64,000 nt of DNA from Caproicibacterium sp. BJN0003 (GTDB lineage: Bacteria; Bacillota; Clostridia; Oscillospirales; Acutalibacteraceae), in contig NZ_CP111108.1 in the NCBI RefSeq assembly GCF_026314295.1, positions 806,001 to 870,000 on the forward strand, in the 5' to 3' direction. The notes beneath the pieces are model-generated. The model saw nothing but the letters and a program-made list of their open reading frames with translations. It did no database searches and was not told the origin of the DNA. Numbering within the stretch: the stretch's first letter is position 1; each line of letters starts with the position of its first letter. Both the position numbers and the translations under genes were made by a program. Positions 20,461 through 28,954 of this stretch are shown piece by piece.

Positions 20461-21108
20461 TTATGCGTCTGGATCTCGAAATTCGCAGTCTGTTTTTTTG
20501 CAGGAGCTACAATGCCCTTCGTGGCAGTCTTGTCCTTCTGTGGTGACGCCGATAACTGCTGTTACACTTTTGGAGGGGGCAAGAATATCGCTTTCGGTAG
20601 CAGTCAGGCCAATTCGTTTTTCGGCCTCTAAAATTCGAAGCAGAGAGCCTTGACCGGAGAGCGGAAAATCTCCATATCCCGGAGAAAAGCGCGGCTTGAG
20701 GAAGAGGCCGTCTGAATGAATAGACGACCGCAGAGAAGAGCAGATCTCATTGCAGTAGGATTCGATCAGCGCTGCGGAACTTGCCTGATAAATGAGGGCA
20801 AGACTCATATCTTGTGTGGTTGCGCGGCGAATCAGAAGATCAGGCACGGGACCAAGTGTCGCTGCAAAAAGATAGGCGCTTTTACAGAGATTAAGATGGT
20901 GAGCTAAATCATGGCTTTCTGTTTTAAAAGGGCCAATTTTGCAGAGAGAACCAGATAACGTTACTGGATAATTTGCATAAATGCTTCGCGGCCGAATTCT
21001 ATCGAGAAGTTCTTTTAAGCAGGATTCGATCCGTTCTCTGGTTTGGGGATCGGCCGGATGTCCCCGAAACCCTAGATAACGTTCGATTTCCCGACGGTTA
21101 ATTTCCAT
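20461..21108 (-). CDS. Stand-alone methionine synthase activation-domain protein
   Basis: A 215-residue protein resembling the B12-dependent methionine synthase activation domain. RSIYANYPV matches the family, and a Cys-rich tail (CHEGHCSSCKKTDCEF) may bind metal. It probably supplies the AdoMet reactivation that the neighbouring MetH lacks. The start at 21108 overlaps the end of metF by 11 bases, and no clear ribosome site is seen, so translation is likely coupled. An in-frame extension to 21153 would lie within metF. Confidence 0.8.
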   Translation of the reverse strand: MEINRREIERYLGFRGHPADPQTRERIESCLKELLDRIRPRSIYANYPVTLSGSLCKIGPFKTESHDLAHHLNLCKSAYLFAATLGPVPDLLIRRATTQDMSLALIYQASSAALIESYCNEICSSLRSSIHSDGLFLKPRFSPGYGDFPLSGQGSLLRILEAEKRIGLTATESDILAPSKSVTAVIGVTTEGQDCHEGHCSSCKKTDCEFRDPDA

Positions 21109-21973
21109 CGCAGGAGATGACGTCGGAGAGGTTGTGAAAAATTGCCGCAGCAATATCAGGCTTGTTCATCGTATAAATGTGGATGTGGGGAACCCCGTTG
21201 CTGATTAAGTTGATGATCTGTTCGGTGGCATAAGCAATTCCAGCTTGTTTCATCGCTTTCGGATCAGAACCAAAGCGGTCGGCGATCGCCTTGAATCTCT
21301 GGGGAAGAATTGTTCCGGAAAGTGAGCAGATGCGGGTAATCTGTTTTGCATTTGTCACCGGCATAATGCCTGCAATAATCGGCACATTGACGCCGCCTGC
21401 CAAAGCGCGAAACATAAAATTATAGAATAGATCATTATCAAAGAACATCTGGCTGGTCAGAAAATCACAGCCGGCTTCAACTTTTTCATGCAGATGACGA
21501 ATATCCTCCGTCTTATGCGCACATTCCACATGACCTTCGGGATAACAGGCTCCGCCGATACAAAAGTCACCCTGTGTTTTAATTTCCCGAATCAGTTCGC
21601 TCGCATAGTGATATTGATTTGGTGTGGGGAAATCTTTGCCTTCCGGGATATCGCCTCTCAGTGCCAAAATATTTTCAATTCCAGCTTTTTTCAGTCCTGC
21701 GAGACGCTCAGAAATCTCATCCCGCGTAGAAGAGACACAGGTTAGGTGTGCAAGAGCCGGCACATGACTTTTTTGAATTTCCTGTGCAATTCGAACGGTT
21801 GTCGCACTTGTTCCGCCGCCTGCTCCGTAAGTAACACTCATAAAAGCGGGATGCAGAGCGGAAATTTGCTTTACAACTTCCTGCGCCTGGGGTAGATCTT
21901 CTCCCTTTTTGGGAGGAAACAGCTCACAGGAAATGGTAGTATGTCCGCTATTTAATAGGTCGATAATTTTCAT
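21098..21973 (-). CDS. metF: Methylenetetrahydrofolate reductase
   Basis: A 291-residue TIM-barrel flavoprotein that makes 5-methyl-THF for methionine synthase. CELFPPKKGED near the start, MSVTYGAGGGTS, ALRGD, and DFLTSQMFFD are conserved MTHFR motifs. AAGGGGAT precedes ATG 21973. First gene of the minus-strand metF/activation/metH operon. No S-box, T-box or cobalamin riboswitch can be fitted in the roughly 230 bases before it. Confidence 0.93.
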   Translation of the reverse strand: MKIIDLLNSGHTTISCELFPPKKGEDLPQAQEVVKQISALHPAFMSVTYGAGGGTSATTVRIAQEIQKSHVPALAHLTCVSSTRDEISERLAGLKKAGIENILALRGDIPEGKDFPTPNQYHYASELIREIKTQGDFCIGGACYPEGHVECAHKTEDIRHLHEKVEAGCDFLTSQMFFDNDLFYNFMFRALAGGVNVPIIAGIMPVTNAKQITRICSLSGTILPQRFKAIADRFGSDPKAMKQAGIAYATEQIINLISNGVPHIHIYTMNKPDIAAAIFHNLSDVISCDGN

Positions 21974-22102: not shown

Positions 22103-22131
22103 TTGTCATTTTGTATAAAATGATTTATAAT
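22103..22131 (+). promoter_or_regulatory. Promoter of the NSS transporter gene
   Basis: TTGTCA (22103-22108), 17-bp spacer, perfect TATAAT (22126-22131), 75 bases before the start codon. Confidence 0.7.
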
Positions 22132-22205: not shown

Positions 22206-23594
22206 ATGCAAGAGAGAGAAAAGTTTTCATCGCGCCTAGGATTTCTGCTGATTTCCGCAGGATGTGCAATCGGTCTTGGCAATGTTTGGAGATTCCCTTA
22301 TATTACAGGGAAATATGGCGGCGGTGCATTTGTGCTGGTGTACCTATTTTTCCTTTTAATTCTGGGACTGCCAATTATGGTCATGGAATTTTCAGTGGGG
22401 CGTGCAAGTCAAAAGAGCGCAGCGCGTTCTTTTCATGTTTTGGAGCCTGCGGGCAGTAAATGGCATCTCTACAGTTATGGAGCAATCGCGGGAAACTTTT
22501 TGCTGATGATGTTCTATACGACGGTTGCCGGCTGGATGCTGGATTATTTTGTGAAATTTTTAAGAGGCGAATTTCAGGGGCGTTCTCCGGAAGAAGTGAA
22601 AACCGTTTTCGGAACGATGCTTACGAATTCCGGTGAAATGACCTTTTGGATGGTTGTTGTGGTTCTGCTGGGCTTTGGAATTTGTGCCATGGGGCTCAAA
22701 GACGGAGTAGAGCGGATTAATAAAGTTATGATGGTCAGCCTATTTGTGGTAATGATTATTTTGGCGGTTCGTTCGGTAACACTGCCGGGTGCCTCAGAAG
22801 GAATGAAATTTTATCTGCTGCCGGATTTTGGGCGTATGATGGAAGCAGGCTTCGGAGAAGCTGTTTTTGCAGCGATGGGACAGGCTTTCTTTACTCTCAG
22901 CCTTGGAATCGGTGCGCTTGCTATTTTCGGCAGCTATATTGGAAAGGACCGTTCTCTGACAGGCGAAAGCATCAGAATCGCCGGATTGGATACCTTTGTC
23001 GCTCTGGTTGCAGGCATGATTATTTTTCCGGCATGCTTTGCATTTAATATTCCGACAGACAGCGGCCCGGGACTTGTATTTATTACCTTGCCGAATGTTT
23101 TTGAACAAATGTCCGGGGGAAGAATCTGGGGTGCGCTTTTCTTCCTATTTATGAGCTTTGCAGCTTTGAGCACCGTAATTGCTGTCTTTGAAAACTTGTG
23201 CGCCTTTGGAATGGAGCTCAAACACTGGAGCCGGAAAAAAGCGGTCTTAATTAATTTAGTTCTCGTTTTGGTCCTCTCGCTTCCCTGTGTATTGGGCTTT
23301 AATCTGTGGAGCGGATTTACTCCTTTTGGTGCGGGTTCAACGGTACAGGATCTCGAGGACTTTTTGGTGAGTAACAATCTTCTTCCATTAGGCAGTCTTG
23401 TTTATTTACTATTTTGTGTTTCGAAAAAAGGCTGGGGTTGGGATCACTTTATCGAAGAAGCGAATAGTGGTGAAGGCCTTAAATTTCCAAAATCGATTCG
23501 CTTTTATGTGACTTGGGTGCTGCCCTTTATTGTGCTGTTGATTTTTGTACAGGGATATCTGGCAAAATTCTGGCCGGGAGTTTTTAATGTCTGA
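22206..23594 (+). CDS. Sodium-dependent transporter, NSS/SNF family
   Basis: A 462-residue LeuT-fold symporter with about 11-12 membrane segments. The first segment carries AGCAIGLGNVWRFPY followed by GGGAFVLVYL, the signature of the family around the sodium and substrate sites. It probably imports an amino acid with sodium; the substrate cannot be read from the sequence. ATG 22206 has AAGGAT upstream. Only 40 bases separate it from the methyltransferase gene. Confidence 0.92.
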   Translation: MQEREKFSSRLGFLLISAGCAIGLGNVWRFPYITGKYGGGAFVLVYLFFLLILGLPIMVMEFSVGRASQKSAARSFHVLEPAGSKWHLYSYGAIAGNFLLMMFYTTVAGWMLDYFVKFLRGEFQGRSPEEVKTVFGTMLTNSGEMTFWMVVVVLLGFGICAMGLKDGVERINKVMMVSLFVVMIILAVRSVTLPGASEGMKFYLLPDFGRMMEAGFGEAVFAAMGQAFFTLSLGIGALAIFGSYIGKDRSLTGESIRIAGLDTFVALVAGMIIFPACFAFNIPTDSGPGLVFITLPNVFEQMSGGRIWGALFFLFMSFAALSTVIAVFENLCAFGMELKHWSRKKAVLINLVLVLVLSLPCVLGFNLWSGFTPFGAGSTVQDLEDFLVSNNLLPLGSLVYLLFCVSKKGWGWDHFIEEANSGEGLKFPKSIRFYVTWVLPFIVLLIFVQGYLAKFWPGVFNV

Positions 23595-23634: not shown

Positions 23635-26600
23635 TTGGATAAGAGTGCTGTGCGTGAAGTAGCGCAGAAAGCTAGACAGCAGTTGGAAGAAATGGTTCAA
23701 AAAAATCTTTCTGCACTTCATGCCTGCCGCCTTTCGGGGGATGATGCTTTTCGGCGGGACATTCTCCTCAAAGAAGAAGAGCAGCAAGGAACTTTGGCAC
23801 TTTGCAAAAAAGCTGCTTACCGATTTTTCCGGGAACTGATTGCTGTTCGGTATATGGAACTAAATGGCTATTTGCCATATCGGGTTCTGTCTTCTCAAAA
23901 GTCAAATACGGTTGAACCTGATTTTTTGGCGCATTGGCTTTTAACCCATCAAGATACCTTGGATCGGGATGCACTTTTTACCAAGCTGTTTCAAAGGACC
24001 TGTCTGTCCCTTGCTTCTCAGATGCCGGATTATTTTCCAGTGCCGGATGAGATGGACTTACTTCTCAGTTTAAGCTATCGAAAAGGCGTTGTCCGAACTT
24101 TGTGCGACGGCCTTTCCGAGGAAGAATGGCTGGGACAGGTAGAATTGATCGGTTGGCTTTATCAGTCTTATCACCTACAAGAAAAAAATGCGGCGATTGA
24201 CCTTTATGCCGGTAAAGTTAAAATGAAAAATTTGACTGCGGCAACACAGTTCTTTACAACGGATTGGGTCGTTCGCTATATGGTCGAAAATTCTCTCGGC
24301 AGAGTCTGGCTGGAAGGACACCCGGAAAGCCGTCTGCGAAGGGAGATGCCCTATTATCTTGATCTTCCGGAAGAAACAAAGCGTGCTCCGATGGAACCGA
24401 GAGATTTAAAGATTCTGGATCCCTGTATGGGCGGTGGACATATTCTTGTCTATGCCTTTGAACTTTTGCTCAAAATTTATTCGGAATGTGGGGTTCCACC
24501 AAAGCGCGCCGCTTCTTTAATTTTGCAGGACAATCTTTATGGATTGGATATTGATGAACGCAGCCGGGAACTGACGGCATTTGCACTTTTAATGAAAGCT
24601 CGTTCCTGTGATCCGGATATTTTTGAGAAGGGGGTTACTTTGCATTTTGCGGCGATTCATCACAGTCGTAAAATTGACAAAGAGGCACTTCACTATGCGT
24701 CTGGTGGAAATGAAGCTTTATATGATGATTTACAGAAACTGACGGCTGCTTTTTATTATGGCGATCAGTTTGGTTCGATCCTGAATGCCCCAAAAGTGGA
24801 TCTCAAAGCACTTAAATCCCGCTTTTCGGTGATTCGTGGGGAACAATATCCAGATAATTTGTTTCGTATGGAAGCACAGCGAAAAGCCCTGCAGGAATTG
24901 TGGCCGCTTGTTTGCCAAGCTGAGATTATGGGGCAAAAGTACATGTGCGTTGTCACGAATCCTCCTTACCTTAACCATATGGATAAGCCTCTTAGAAATT
25001 ATGTAGATAAGAATTTCCCGGATTATAATAACGATCTTTTTGCAGTCTTTATGGTACATAATTTTGATTTTTGCAAGGAAGATGGCTATTGCGCATTCAT
25101 GACGCCGTTTGTCTGGATGTTTATCAAATCTTATGAATCGCTGCGGCGCTTTCTAATTCAGGAAAAAAGTGTTTCCTCTTTGATACAAATGGAATATTCT
25201 GCTTTTGAAGAAGCAACCGTTCCACTTTGTTCTTTTGTTTTGCAGAACCAAAAGGAAAAATATCCGGGGATTTATCTGCGCTTGACGGATTATAAAGGTG
25301 GCATGGAGGAGCAGAAAAAGCGTGTTCTTTATGATTCTCTCCATCCGGACAGCAAAGATCGTTTCGAGGCGTCTTTAAAAGATTTTAGAGAGATCCCGGG
25401 AATGCCGTTTGCCTATTGGGCTGATAGAAATGTTGGCAGGGCCTTTCAGGAGGGTGCCCCTCTTGGAAAAGTTGCACAGATCAGCAACGGACTTTTTACC
25501 TGTAATAATCAGCGCTTTTTGAGATTCTGGTATGAGGTAGAGCCGGAAGAAATTGATTTCTGGTGTGAAGATGAGTCTGATTGCCGAATGAGCGGAAAAC
25601 GCTGGTTTCCTTACAACAAAGGCGGTGCCTTCCGAAAATGGTATGGAAATCAGCTCTATGTAGTGGATTTTGCGGATTTCGGCAGGGATATTTGTGCTTA
25701 TCGGATTAAAAGCGGGCAGTCTGCGGCCATGCCTGGTAGACAGAACTATTTTCAGCCCAGTCTTTCTTGGTCTTTTGTCAGTTCCAGTACGTTTGGAGTA
25801 CGGTATTATCCGAAAGGATTTGTTTTTGATATTGCGGGCTCTTCGATTTTTCCGCCAAAAGAGGATCGATTGTATCGCTTAGGATTCCTTAATTCTTCCA
25901 CAGCATTTCAGATTTTGGGGTTTTTGAATCCGACCCTCAATTATCAGGCTGGGAATCTTGCTCTTTTGCCGATTTTGGAAAGTTCAGAAAAAGAGCAGAT
26001 TTGGCGACTGGTACAAAGGAATATTGATCTTTGCAAAGCAGACTGGGACGACCATGAAATCAGTTGGAACTTTAATGGAAATTCACTTCTGAAAACAGGC
26101 GCGTTGACTTTGCAGGAGGCTGTGAAAATTTGGAGCCGGCAGGTAGAAGACCGCAGAGAAGAACTGCGGCAGAATGAAGAAAAGATTAACCGTCATTTTG
26201 CTGATTTGTATCAAACCGGTGCACCGGTCGAGGTGGGAGATAAAGCGCTTTCGATTGCGCCGCCGGAACCGGAAAAGGCAATCAAAGAGCTTGCTTCTTA
26301 TTTTGTTGGACTATTATTTGGACGTTATAGAGAAGATCATTTTCATGAGAAATCTGTCTCTTGGTGCAGCCCCTGCGAGATTGCATCTGCTTTTTCAGAG
26401 TTTCTCAAAAAACGTTTTGGAGAAGATGCGGTTTCTTTTGCCGCTTCATTTTTAGGAAAGGGAACAGCGGAGAAAGTTTTAGAAGCCTACTTCGAAAAAA
26501 AATTTTTTACAGAACATTGCAAACTTTATCACAAAAGGCCAATTTATTGGCAGATAAAAAGCGGAGAAAAAGAGTTTGTTTATTATCATGGGAATGTTTG

Positions 26601-26745
26601 GAAGGCCTTCTGCCAAATTGCAGAGAACGATCCCAAAAATGAGATACCAAAATCGATACTTTCTTCGGAAATCCCTTTTGATCGCAGCCTTGGAATTTCT
26701 CAGAATTATGAGTCATATCAAGAGATTTTGCGAAAGATTCCATAA
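23635..26745 (+). CDS. PglX-like adenine-specific DNA methyltransferase, orphan
   Basis: A 1036-residue protein resembling the BREX-type N6-adenine methyltransferase PglX. N-terminal helical domain (about 1-230); SAM motif I LDPCMGGGHILVYAF (D262 onward); target motif NPPY at 442-445; recognition-type region to about 780; then the C-terminal helical part typical of PglX (FGRYREDH, KRPIYW). The family usually has GSGH where this protein has GGGH, and usually runs to about 1200 residues. TTG 23635 is chosen because AAGAAGGTGA precedes it. No brx, pglZ or restriction gene is near, so it is either a solitary methyltransferase or a remnant. No nuclease motif was seen. Confidence 0.82.
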   Translation: MDKSAVREVAQKARQQLEEMVQKNLSALHACRLSGDDAFRRDILLKEEEQQGTLALCKKAAYRFFRELIAVRYMELNGYLPYRVLSSQKSNTVEPDFLAHWLLTHQDTLDRDALFTKLFQRTCLSLASQMPDYFPVPDEMDLLLSLSYRKGVVRTLCDGLSEEEWLGQVELIGWLYQSYHLQEKNAAIDLYAGKVKMKNLTAATQFFTTDWVVRYMVENSLGRVWLEGHPESRLRREMPYYLDLPEETKRAPMEPRDLKILDPCMGGGHILVYAFELLLKIYSECGVPPKRAASLILQDNLYGLDIDERSRELTAFALLMKARSCDPDIFEKGVTLHFAAIHHSRKIDKEALHYASGGNEALYDDLQKLTAAFYYGDQFGSILNAPKVDLKALKSRFSVIRGEQYPDNLFRMEAQRKALQELWPLVCQAEIMGQKYMCVVTNPPYLNHMDKPLRNYVDKNFPDYNNDLFAVFMVHNFDFCKEDGYCAFMTPFVWMFIKSYESLRRFLIQEKSVSSLIQMEYSAFEEATVPLCSFVLQNQKEKYPGIYLRLTDYKGGMEEQKKRVLYDSLHPDSKDRFEASLKDFREIPGMPFAYWADRNVGRAFQEGAPLGKVAQISNGLFTCNNQRFLRFWYEVEPEEIDFWCEDESDCRMSGKRWFPYNKGGAFRKWYGNQLYVVDFADFGRDICAYRIKSGQSAAMPGRQNYFQPSLSWSFVSSSTFGVRYYPKGFVFDIAGSSIFPPKEDRLYRLGFLNSSTAFQILGFLNPTLNYQAGNLALLPILESSEKEQIWRLVQRNIDLCKADWDDHEISWNFNGNSLLKTGALTLQEAVKIWSRQVEDRREELRQNEEKINRHFADLYQTGAPVEVGDKALSIAPPEPEKAIKELASYFVGLLFGRYREDHFHEKSVSWCSPCEIASAFSEFLKKRFGEDAVSFAASFLGKGTAEKVLEAYFEKKFFTEHCKLYHKRPIYWQIKSGEKEFVYYHGNVWKAFCQIAENDPKNEIPKSILSSEIPFDRSLGISQNYESYQEILRKIP

Positions 26746-26751
26746 ACAAAA

Positions 26752-26803
26752 TAAAGAGCAGACTCTTGTGAAAGTTTTTCTTCACAAAGCCTGCTCTTTT
26801 TAT
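26752..26803. terminator. Bidirectional terminator
   Basis: AAAGAGCAG ... CTGCTCTTT with an inner TTGTGAA/TTCACAA stem, A and T tracts outside; serves the methyltransferase gene and the convergent lipoprotein gene. Confidence 0.8.
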
Positions 26804-26821: not shown

Positions 26822-27352
26822 TTATGATCCTATTGAAAATCTGCGTTTTACATCGTTTTCAGAAAGTGCCATACTGTTATATAGGTCGGCTTCTTTTCCG
26901 ATGGGAAGAGAACAACTTTCCGGCAGGACAGCGTAATAATATCCGCCGCTATTTTCTCCAAGAAAAAAAACGTTTTGATCTTTGCAGAGAGATGAAAATT
27001 GTACCGAAAATTCATCGCTGCTGTATTTCTGTGATTCCAAGAAAATCCGCAGAAGGGGAACAGAAGGATCATGGGCATAATAAAACGAGGTGTATCCATT
27101 TTTAGAAGATTCGTCGAAAATGGTTTCTTGTGTGTAAAGAGGGCTTTCGGAAATCCAGCAAGGTGGAATTCGAAAAGTAAAATGCAGTTGTTCATCTTGA
27201 TAGAATTCTGCAGTTTCCGGCTCTGAAGCGATAGAAGAGAAAGAGGAAGGCTGCTTATAAGGAGCTTGTCCGGAGCAACCGGAGATTTCCAGCATAAAAA
27301 ATAAAAAGCATTCGCAGCATAATAGAATTCGAAACCATTTTTTTCTGCCCAT
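26822..27352 (-). CDS. Putative lipoprotein, function unknown
   Basis: A 176-residue secreted protein. The start has RKKW charges, a hydrophobic core, and a lipobox ending ISGC, so lipid attachment is expected. The mature part has no motif I recognise. GAGGTGA precedes ATG 27352; the frame could extend to 27391 without a ribosome site. It has its own promoter. Confidence 0.7.
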   Translation of the reverse strand: MGRKKWFRILLCCECFLFFMLEISGCSGQAPYKQPSSFSSIASEPETAEFYQDEQLHFTFRIPPCWISESPLYTQETIFDESSKNGYTSFYYAHDPSVPLLRIFLESQKYSSDEFSVQFSSLCKDQNVFFLGENSGGYYYAVLPESCSLPIGKEADLYNSMALSENDVKRRFSIGS

Positions 27353-27386
27353 TTTGTCACCTCGCTTTTTAGGATTACTAAAATTC

Positions 27387-27416
27387 ATCATAATAAAGTG
27401 GAAGTGAGAAAGTCAA
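27387..27416 (-). promoter_or_regulatory. Promoter of the lipoprotein gene
   Basis: On the minus strand TTGACT (27416-27411), 18-bp spacer, TATGAT (27392-27387), about 35 bases before the start codon. Confidence 0.6.
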
Positions 27417-27457: not shown

Positions 27458-27486
27458 TTGACTTTTTTAATGAAATACAATACAAT
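27458..27486 (+). promoter_or_regulatory. Promoter of the FAD-dependent oxidoreductase gene
   Basis: TTGACT (27458-27463), 17-bp spacer, TACAAT (27481-27486), 35 bases before the start codon; five of six matches in each box. Confidence 0.7.
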
Positions 27487-27520
27487 AAATCGGTTTATGA
27501 GAAAAACAATGGAGGAAAAC

Positions 27521-28954
27521 ATGAGACAATTTGACTATGATTTATTAGTAATTGGAGCTGGCCCTGCGGGAATATTTACCGCTTTGGAAATGAATCGGCT
27601 GGCGCCTGAAAAGAAAGTTCTGGTGATAGATTCCGGCAGCGCAATTGCCAAAAGAACATGTCCGGCCAGAACCAGCGGTCAATGTGTACATTGTAAGACC
27701 TGCAATATTATGAACGGCTGGGCAGGAGCCGGAGCATTTTCAGACGGAAAACTTTCTCTTTCGGAGGAAGTTGGCGGGCATATTACGGATTTTATGAGCA
27801 CACAGGAAGCGGAAAAGATGATTCATTACTGCGATGAAATCTATCTGAAATTTGGTGCGCCCAAAAAAGTGTTTGGAGAAGGCAACAAATTTGCCGATAA
27901 GATTGCCTATGAAGCCCGCAAGGAAAATATTCAGCTGATTCATTGCCCGGTACGTCATATGGGAACGGAATACAGCTTTCAAGTTCTCAGCGCTATGTAT
28001 GATTATTTAGCTGCACAGCCGAATTTCGAGTTCCGTGCGCATACGACTGCCGATACTATTTTTGTAGAAGACGGCCGTGCCTGTGGAGCATATCTTTTAG
28101 GACCGGACGGAAAAAAAGAACTTGTGAGGGCTAAGCGTGTTGTGGCAGCCCCCGGCCGCGGCGGTGCAGACTGGTTGAATCGAATCAGCAAAGAAACCGG
28201 GCTGTCAGTTACCAATAATGAAGTGGATATTGGAGTGCGGGTAGAAGTACCGAATGCGGTGATGGATCACCTGACGAAAAATCTTTATGAAGCAAAATTG
28301 ATTTATTATTCTGATACTTTTGAGAATAAAGTGCGTACTTTTTGCATGAATCCCGGAGGAATCGTCAGCGAAGAACATTATGATGGACCTAACGGAGGAA
28401 TTGCAGTTGTAAATGGGCATTCCTATGCAGATGAAGATCGCCACAGCGATAATACAAACTTTGCACTGCTTGTTTCCACAAAATTTACGCAGCCGTTCCA
28501 TCAGCCGATTGAATATGGGCGATATATCGCCCAGTTGGGGAATATGCTTACCGGCGGCGGAATTATGGTACAGCGGCTGGGAGATTTGCTTTTGGGGCGC
28601 CGTACCGATGAGACGCGGCTGCAGAAAAGCACTACGATCCCGACGCTGAAAAATGCGGTGCCGGGAGATCTTTCTTTCGTTCTGCCACATCGTCATTTGA
28701 CTTCTATTGTAGAGACGCTGCGGGCGCTTGATAAGCTGGCGCCGGGTCTCTACAGCAGAAATACGCTGCTTTATGGAGTGGAAGTTAAGTTCTATTCCGC
28801 TAAAGTCGCGGTCAATCAAAACTTTGAAACGCAGCTTCCGGCACTTTATGCGATCGGTGACGGCGCCGGGATTACTCGTGGATTGATGCAGGCATCTGTT
28901 ACCGGGGTCATGGCAGCTCGTCATATTATAGAAAGCCTGAAAGAAACAAATTAA
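27521..28954 (+). CDS. NAD(P)/FAD-dependent oxidoreductase
   Basis: A 477-residue flavoprotein. The Rossmann motif VIGAGPAGIFTALEM (about residues 9-23) binds FAD. A Cys-rich element CPARTSGQCVHCKTCNIM follows near residues 47-64, then SDGKLSL. The C-terminus has the FAD-closing motif YAIGDGAGITRGLMQA. This belongs to a widespread FAD-dependent dehydrogenase family of unknown substrate; the Cys-rich element may hold a cluster or a redox disulfide. ATG 27521 has GGAGG five bases upstream. Confidence 0.83.
   Translation: MRQFDYDLLVIGAGPAGIFTALEMNRLAPEKKVLVIDSGSAIAKRTCPARTSGQCVHCKTCNIMNGWAGAGAFSDGKLSLSEEVGGHITDFMSTQEAEKMIHYCDEIYLKFGAPKKVFGEGNKFADKIAYEARKENIQLIHCPVRHMGTEYSFQVLSAMYDYLAAQPNFEFRAHTTADTIFVEDGRACGAYLLGPDGKKELVRAKRVVAAPGRGGADWLNRISKETGLSVTNNEVDIGVRVEVPNAVMDHLTKNLYEAKLIYYSDTFENKVRTFCMNPGGIVSEEHYDGPNGGIAVVNGHSYADEDRHSDNTNFALLVSTKFTQPFHQPIEYGRYIAQLGNMLTGGGIMVQRLGDLLLGRRTDETRLQKSTTIPTLKNAVPGDLSFVLPHRHLTSIVETLRALDKLAPGLYSRNTLLYGVEVKFYSAKVAVNQNFETQLPALYAIGDGAGITRGLMQASVTGVMAARHIIESLKETN

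What the first reader, a model, noticed from the sequence alone, without database searches (positions are those of the whole stretch)
23635..26745. Orphan PglX-type DNA methyltransferase without a BREX cluster
The protein shows the SAM motif I, NPPY and C-terminal motifs of BREX PglX. Yet an amino-acid symporter lies on one side and a lipoprotein on the other, with no brxA, brxB, brxC, pglZ or brxL gene within the window. A lone PglX-like enzyme may serve gene regulation, protect against a foreign BREX system, or be a Type IIG-like relic. The motif GGGH in place of the usual GSGH also deserves a test of activity.
Basis: partly seen in the sequence, partly recalled or inferred. Interest (0 to 1): 0.6.

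Follow-up and report, generated by a model that had tools for sequence, protein, structure and literature searches.

The report
Lineage-conserved solitary BREX-type DNA methyltransferase
A DNA-methylating enzyme normally found inside a multi-gene anti-virus system (BREX) has here become a permanent, stand-alone chromosomal gene kept by every sampled species of the genus, with a frozen DNA-recognition domain, so it probably marks the bacterium's own DNA for regulation rather than for defence.

Summary
The gene is real: a 1,036-aa BREX-1 PglX/BrxX homologue with an intact NPPY active site. It is solitary, but the genome is not BREX-free: it carries two BREX relics elsewhere, one with its own PglX and a brxC lacking its first ~395 residues. 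The lone enzyme does not depend on them: a full-length orthologue occurs in 11/11 genomes of the genus and 8/11 of a sister genus, PglZ in only 3/11. Orthologues keep their neighbours, co-diverge with them (r 0.95-0.98) and evolve under strong purifying selection (dN/dS 0.05-0.08). The target-recognition domain, the most variable part of BREX PglX, is here the best conserved; 12 aligned DNA-contact positions are almost invariant. N- and C-terminal domains are shortened and the CTD metal site is lost or degraded. The model matches BrxX end to end and lacks the nuclease domain of Type IIG/IIL enzymes. Best reading: a BrxX domesticated into a housekeeping adenine methyltransferase, working like CamA. 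Activity and target motif are untested.

The parts
23635..26745 (+). Solitary BREX-1 PglX/BrxX-type DNA adenine methyltransferase, 1,036 aa, TTG start
23635..24135 (+). N-terminal helical domain (about aa 1-167; 36 aa shorter than the BREX median); no nuclease fold
   Evidence: boundaries transferred by alignment from E. coli BrxX (PMC11842806)
24136..25386 (+). Methyltransferase domain (about aa 168-584), active-site residues of BrxX kept
24418..24444 (+). SAM-binding motif I, DPCMGGGHI (aa 262-270)
24958..24969 (+). Catalytic motif IV, NPPY (aa 442-445), invariant
25387..25989 (+). Target-recognition domain (about aa 585-785), best conserved part of the protein across orthologues
25990..26742 (+). 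C-terminal domain (about 250 aa against a median of 353 in BREX); metal ligands and part of the two-helix bundle lost
22206..23594 (+). Sodium-dependent transporter directly upstream (40-bp gap), same strand; probably co-transcribed, but this pairing is confined to the G000/G010/G001/G003 subgroup
22103..22131 (+). Promoter-like site (11 of 12 consensus bases) before the transporter; the number of such sites in the region is at chance level
26753..26799 (+). Intrinsic terminator hairpin followed by a T run, between the methyltransferase and the convergent lipoprotein gene
   Evidence: -20.3 kcal/mol, z -4.1
26822..27391 (-). Small lipoprotein; neighbour conserved in the G000 subgroup and in most of the sister-genus group
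27458..28954 (+). FAD-dependent oxidoreductase; neighbour in 10 of 11 genus genomes and all 6 sister-group loci examined
21098..21973 (-). metF (methylenetetrahydrofolate reductase); neighbour of the methyltransferase in 7 of 10 genus loci long enough to tell

Best explanation
It is a domesticated BrxX/PglX: a solitary N6-adenine DNA methyltransferase, inherited vertically in the chromosome of this genus and its sister group. It methylates one fixed, probably asymmetric site on host DNA and acts as a housekeeping epigenetic mark, working like the orphan methyltransferase CamA. Shown by computation: homology and fold, solitary state, conservation, vertical descent, purifying selection, a frozen recognition domain, and shortened BREX-specific domains. 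Inferred: that it is active without BrxB, BrxC and PglZ; that the trimmed NTD/CTD and lost metal site freed it from the inhibition proposed for BrxX; and that the mark regulates genes.
For: Full-length orthologue in 11/11 genus genomes and 8/11 of the sister genus, against PglZ in 3/11. FAD-oxidoreductase neighbour in 16 of 17 loci examined. dN/dS 0.054-0.082, close to the metabolic neighbours; identities co-vary with three neighbours at r 0.95-0.98. TRD/MTD identity ratio at least 1.02 in all 49 orphan pairs against a median of about 0.67 in 53 BREX/other PglX pairs. Twelve contact positions read NFPVSSIALNAT with only a few P>T, I>V and similar exceptions. Active-site residues intact. Orphans monophyletic (SH 0.88 whole protein, 0.99 MTD only). 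No nuclease domain, full-length match to BrxX. Streptomyces PglX, which lacks BrxX-type NTD and CTD, methylates alone (PMC11842806).
Against: No methylation data. E. coli BrxX alone does not methylate and needs BrxB, BrxC and PglZ (PMC11842806); the orphan still keeps much of the NTD and CTD and the whole MTD insert (93-94 aa against 93). MTD-only bootstrap for the whole orphan clade is 37/60. No regulated gene is known. 3 of 11 sister-genus genomes lack it, although two of these are only 85-87% complete.
Confidence: 0.7

Rival explanations
1. Anti-BREX or anti-restriction protection: the enzyme pre-methylates host DNA at the site of a common foreign BREX or R-M system, so that such an element cannot attack or addict the cell.
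For: A BREX-associated PglX from an Agathobaculum MAG (L063) shares almost the same contact pattern (NFPVSAIAINAT, TRD identity 0.53). Solitary methyltransferases with protective roles are known (general knowledge).
Against: The PglX of resident BREX loci in the same genomes (G000, G006, G009) and a second PglX in G418 carry different contact residues. A gene kept in 11/11 species for as long as its metabolic neighbours suggests constant selection rather than an episodic threat.
Confidence: 0.13
2. Not a methyltransferase on its own but a SAM-dependent, sequence-specific DNA-binding regulator, possibly of the methionine/SAM-cycle genes it sits beside.
For: E. coli BrxX alone binds its site, binding is enhanced by SAM, and it does not methylate (PMC11842806). 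metF lies beside the gene in 7 of 10 testable genus loci, and the methyltransferase is directly upstream of metH in four genomes, overlapping it in G007.
Against: Complete active site under purifying selection, though NPPY is also needed for binding in BrxX. The metF/metH link is absent in three genus genomes and in the sister genus.
Confidence: 0.08
3. Partner of the BREX components elsewhere in the genome: it supplies a second specificity to a BREX complex.
For: The own genome has pglZ (two), brxL and a brxC fragment; BrxX works in a complex (PMC11842806).
Against: 8 of 11 genus genomes have no PglZ match yet keep the gene. The own brxC lacks its first ~395 residues and no BrxB was found. 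Resident BREX loci in relatives have their own PglX.
Confidence: 0.04
4. Type IIG/IIL restriction-modification enzyme or a relic of one.
For: PADLOC Type IIG model PDLC03600 scores 776 bits.
Against: No nuclease domain: the N-terminal part is helical, and DrdV/MmeI align from their residues 151/161 to residue 1 of the model. The PglX model scores higher (916 bits).
Confidence: 0.03

Closest known systems
BrxX/PglX of Type 1 BREX (Salmonella 8c45, E. coli HS 9ewz)
   Same: Same full-length fold (about 1,000 residues aligned, Z 43-46), same active site, about 31-33% identity
   Different: No BREX genes beside it; TRD frozen rather than variable; shorter NTD and CTD; CTD metal ligands lost or degraded; vertical core gene
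CamA, orphan adenine methyltransferase of Clostridioides difficile
   Same: Solitary, lineage-conserved adenine methyltransferase without nuclease; next-best fold match after BrxX (Z about 28 over about 500 residues); CamA is in all C. difficile genomes and unassociated with a restriction enzyme (PMC8187626)
   Different: Only 15-16% identity; CamA is about 577 aa and lacks BrxX-type NTD/CTD; target site and phenotype are known for CamA, not here
Streptomyces PglX (Type 2 BREX/Pgl)
   Same: PglX family; methylates alone (PMC11842806)
   Different: Part of a multigene defence system; lacks the NTD/CTD that the orphan still partly has

Membership tests
BREX-1 PglX/BrxX protein family | Match above the curated family cut-off and full-length fold | tested here: met
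   NF033452 864 bits against 500; Z 43-46 over about 1,000 residues
BREX-1 PglX/BrxX protein family | NPPY and SAM-binding residues | tested here: met
BREX-1 PglX/BrxX protein family | CTD metal site (D997, D999, D1012, Y1113 in E. coli) conserved in BrxX | tested here: not met
   not intact in any of the 11 genus sequences, degraded or partial in the sister group; largely kept in BREX PglX
Type 1 BREX system | Encoded with brxA, brxB, brxC, pglZ, brxL | tested here: not met
   none of pglZ, brxB, brxC, brxL in the window; gene present in genomes without PglZ; brxA not searched
Type 1 BREX system | Variable target-recognition domain | tested here: not met
   TRD best conserved in the orphan clade
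Solitary (orphan) DNA methyltransferase | No cognate restriction gene nearby | tested here: met
   neighbours are transporter, lipoprotein, oxidoreductase, metF/metH
Solitary (orphan) DNA methyltransferase | Conserved across a lineage and vertically inherited | tested here: met
Solitary (orphan) DNA methyltransferase | Methylates host DNA at a defined motif | not testable with these tools
   needs long-read methylation data or biochemistry
Type IIG/IIL restriction-modification enzyme | Fused nuclease domain at the N-terminus | tested here: not met
   helical N-terminus; DrdV and MmeI chains align from residue 151/161 on; no nuclease family in the Pfam scan

The most novel reading that the evidence does not exclude
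A BREX sensor-methylase has been domesticated into an autonomous, SAM-dependent epigenetic or DNA-binding regulator; its escape from BrxBCZ control came from trimming the NTD and CTD and losing the CTD metal site. At the far end of this reading it acts as a SAM-sensing regulator of the methionine-cycle genes beside it.
Probability: 0.35. Interest if true: 0.75.

Novelty: new variant of a known kind. Interest (0 to 1): 0.55.

Why it matters
How BrxX is kept from methylating without its BREX partners is an open question (PMC11842806). A natural lineage that has kept BrxX alone, under selection, with trimmed NTD and CTD, is a ready experiment: if it methylates alone, comparing it with BrxX points to the inhibitory parts. 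It would also be an example of an anti-phage protein turned housekeeping gene. A search of open papers found no report of a solitary BrxX/PglX with lineage-wide conservation, though absence from that library is weak evidence.

Tried and rejected
The first structure prediction with 12 sequences was poor (pLDDT 60); repeated with 62 sequences (pLDDT 91). The IQ-TREE run stopped without support values; replaced by FastTree with 60 resamplings. Considered and rejected: Type IIG enzyme (no nuclease domain); partner of resident BREX (gene kept without PglZ); pseudogene or decaying relic (dN/dS 0.05-0.08, complete active site); GGGH as a sign of inactivity (varies among orthologues); recent mobile acquisition (conserved neighbours, co-divergence). 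Target-motif prediction was not attempted: contact residues differ from those of E. coli BrxX. Papers on methylation in these genera: none relevant found.

Full report
OBSERVATION. The ORF at 23635-26745 is real: 1,036 aa, TTG start with AGAAGGTG just upstream, NF033452 BREX-1 PglX score 864 bits against a cut-off of 500, Pfam Eco57I and N6_Mtase. A strong terminator hairpin follows it (26753-26799, -20.3 kcal/mol, z -4.1). A sodium-dependent transporter lies 40 bp upstream on the same strand; a lipoprotein gene converges from downstream.

OWN GENOME. The window is 806001-870000 of a single-contig 2.46 Mb genome. PglZ is found twice, both outside the window. Locus A (1.635-1.647 Mb) has brxL, pglZ, a 1,119-aa PglX and a brxC that matches only positions 396-1172 of 1173; beyond it lie phage-like genes (judged by eye). 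No other brxC piece and no BrxB were found. Locus B (about 1.894-1.899 Mb) has a second pglZ, a PLD-like protein and the last quarter of a PglX. So BREX exists here only as relics, each with its own PglX or a remnant of one.

DISTRIBUTION. All 10 other genomes of the genus in the search have a full-length orthologue at 50-96% identity; 8 of 11 genomes of the genus of G035 have one. PglZ is present in only three of the 11 own-genus genomes. Related loci in named genomes include Caproiciproducens faecalis, C. galactitolivorans, bacterium MS4 'Amazonia massiliensis' and unnamed Ruminococcaceae/Oscillospiraceae MAGs; the G035 contig has the same length as the C. faecalis contig. I believe the own genus is Caproicibacterium in GTDB terms; that is from memory and was not tested.

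NEIGHBOURS AND DESCENT. The FAD-oxidoreductase neighbour is found in 10 of 11 own-genus loci and in all 6 sister-group loci examined, and the lipoprotein is shared between the window's subgroup and the sister group. metF is nearby in 7 of 10 own-genus loci long enough to tell; in G002, G004, G005 and G007 the gene is directly upstream of metH, overlapping it by 4 bp in G007. Pairwise identities of the methyltransferase co-vary with those of FADox, metF and metH at r 0.95, 0.97 and 0.98. dN/dS among the four closest genomes is 0.054-0.082, similar to metF and well below the lipoprotein (0.13-0.29). In trees the orphans form one clade (SH 0.88 on the whole protein; 0.99 on the methyltransferase domain, but only 37 of 60 resamplings).

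RECOGNITION DOMAIN. Domain limits and contact residues were taken from the E. coli BrxX-DNA structure paper (PMC11842806) and transferred by alignment, so exact equivalence at 31% identity is not certain. At 0.55-0.75 identity in the methyltransferase domain, all 49 orphan pairs have TRD/MTD identity ratios of at least 1.02; the 53 BREX or other PglX pairs lie between 0.49 and 0.85, with two exceptions (1.1 and 1.27). Pairs are not independent. One of the two search patterns lies in the TRD, which would make the BREX TRDs look more alike than they are; the genomes were not chosen through the TRD. Twelve contact columns read NFPVSSIALNAT in orphans with few exceptions (P>T in G005, I>V in two, one S>N seen) and vary widely among BREX PglX. 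The same N-F-P start of the pattern also occurs in a Lachnospiraceae group without BREX genes nearby (L076, L081, L086, L104), in one BREX PglX (L063) and in distant relatives from Obscuribacterales and Melainabacteria MAGs (L117, L121).

BREX-SPECIFIC PARTS. The orphan NTD is about 167 aa against a median of 203, and the CTD mostly 250-303 against 353. The CTD metal ligands D997, D999, D1012, Y1113 are mostly kept in BREX PglX but not intact in any of the 11 genus sequences and degraded or partial in the sister group. The MTD insert keeps its length. [quoted passage not shown] it cites Streptomyces PglX, without such NTD/CTD, as active alone. The orphan's reduction is therefore suggestive, not proof, of independence.

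STRUCTURE. AlphaFold2 with 62 sequences gives pLDDT 91.3 and pTM 0.83. The best matches are BrxX/PglX (Z 40-46, about 1,000 residues); the next is CamA (Z about 28, about 500 residues); DrdV and MmeI align from their residues 151 and 161 to residue 1 of the model, so their nuclease domain has no counterpart.

INTERPRETATION. A vertically inherited, strongly constrained, solitary enzyme with one frozen specificity fits a housekeeping epigenetic methyltransferase much better than a defence gene, whose recognition domain would be expected to vary. That it is active alone and regulates genes is inferred. A protective role against foreign BREX, and a SAM-dependent DNA-binding role without methylation, remain open.

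Noticed in passing
G000:C1:1635000-1660000 (L003, L004), outside the window: A BREX-1 locus whose brxC has lost its first ~395 residues next to phage-like genes; brxB not found in the genome.
   Followed up: partly
G000:C1:1894000-1899000 (L005 9359-13534): Second BREX relic: pglZ, a PLD-like protein (weak NucT/DpdK similarity) and the C-terminal quarter of a PglX.
   Followed up: partly
L105, L106, L108, L110, L114: Another lone, short PglX-like protein (about 709 aa, no CTD; split in L114) in Ruminococcus flavefaciens-type genomes, mostly at a conserved position, with identical contact residues (KSALSGNGLNAT).
   Followed up: partly
L077, L085, L087: Further PglX-like proteins without BREX genes nearby; L085 and L087 share neighbours, and all three keep the same TRD contacts.
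   Followed up: partly
L076, L081, L086, L104: Lachnospiraceae PglX-like proteins without BREX genes nearby that share the N-F-P contact pattern of the orphan clade although the methyltransferase domain is only 34-37% identical.
   Followed up: partly
L092, L109, L116: Gastranaerophilales PglX with 98-99% identical methyltransferase domains but TRDs only 43-46% identical: looks like natural swapping of the recognition domain.
   Followed up: no
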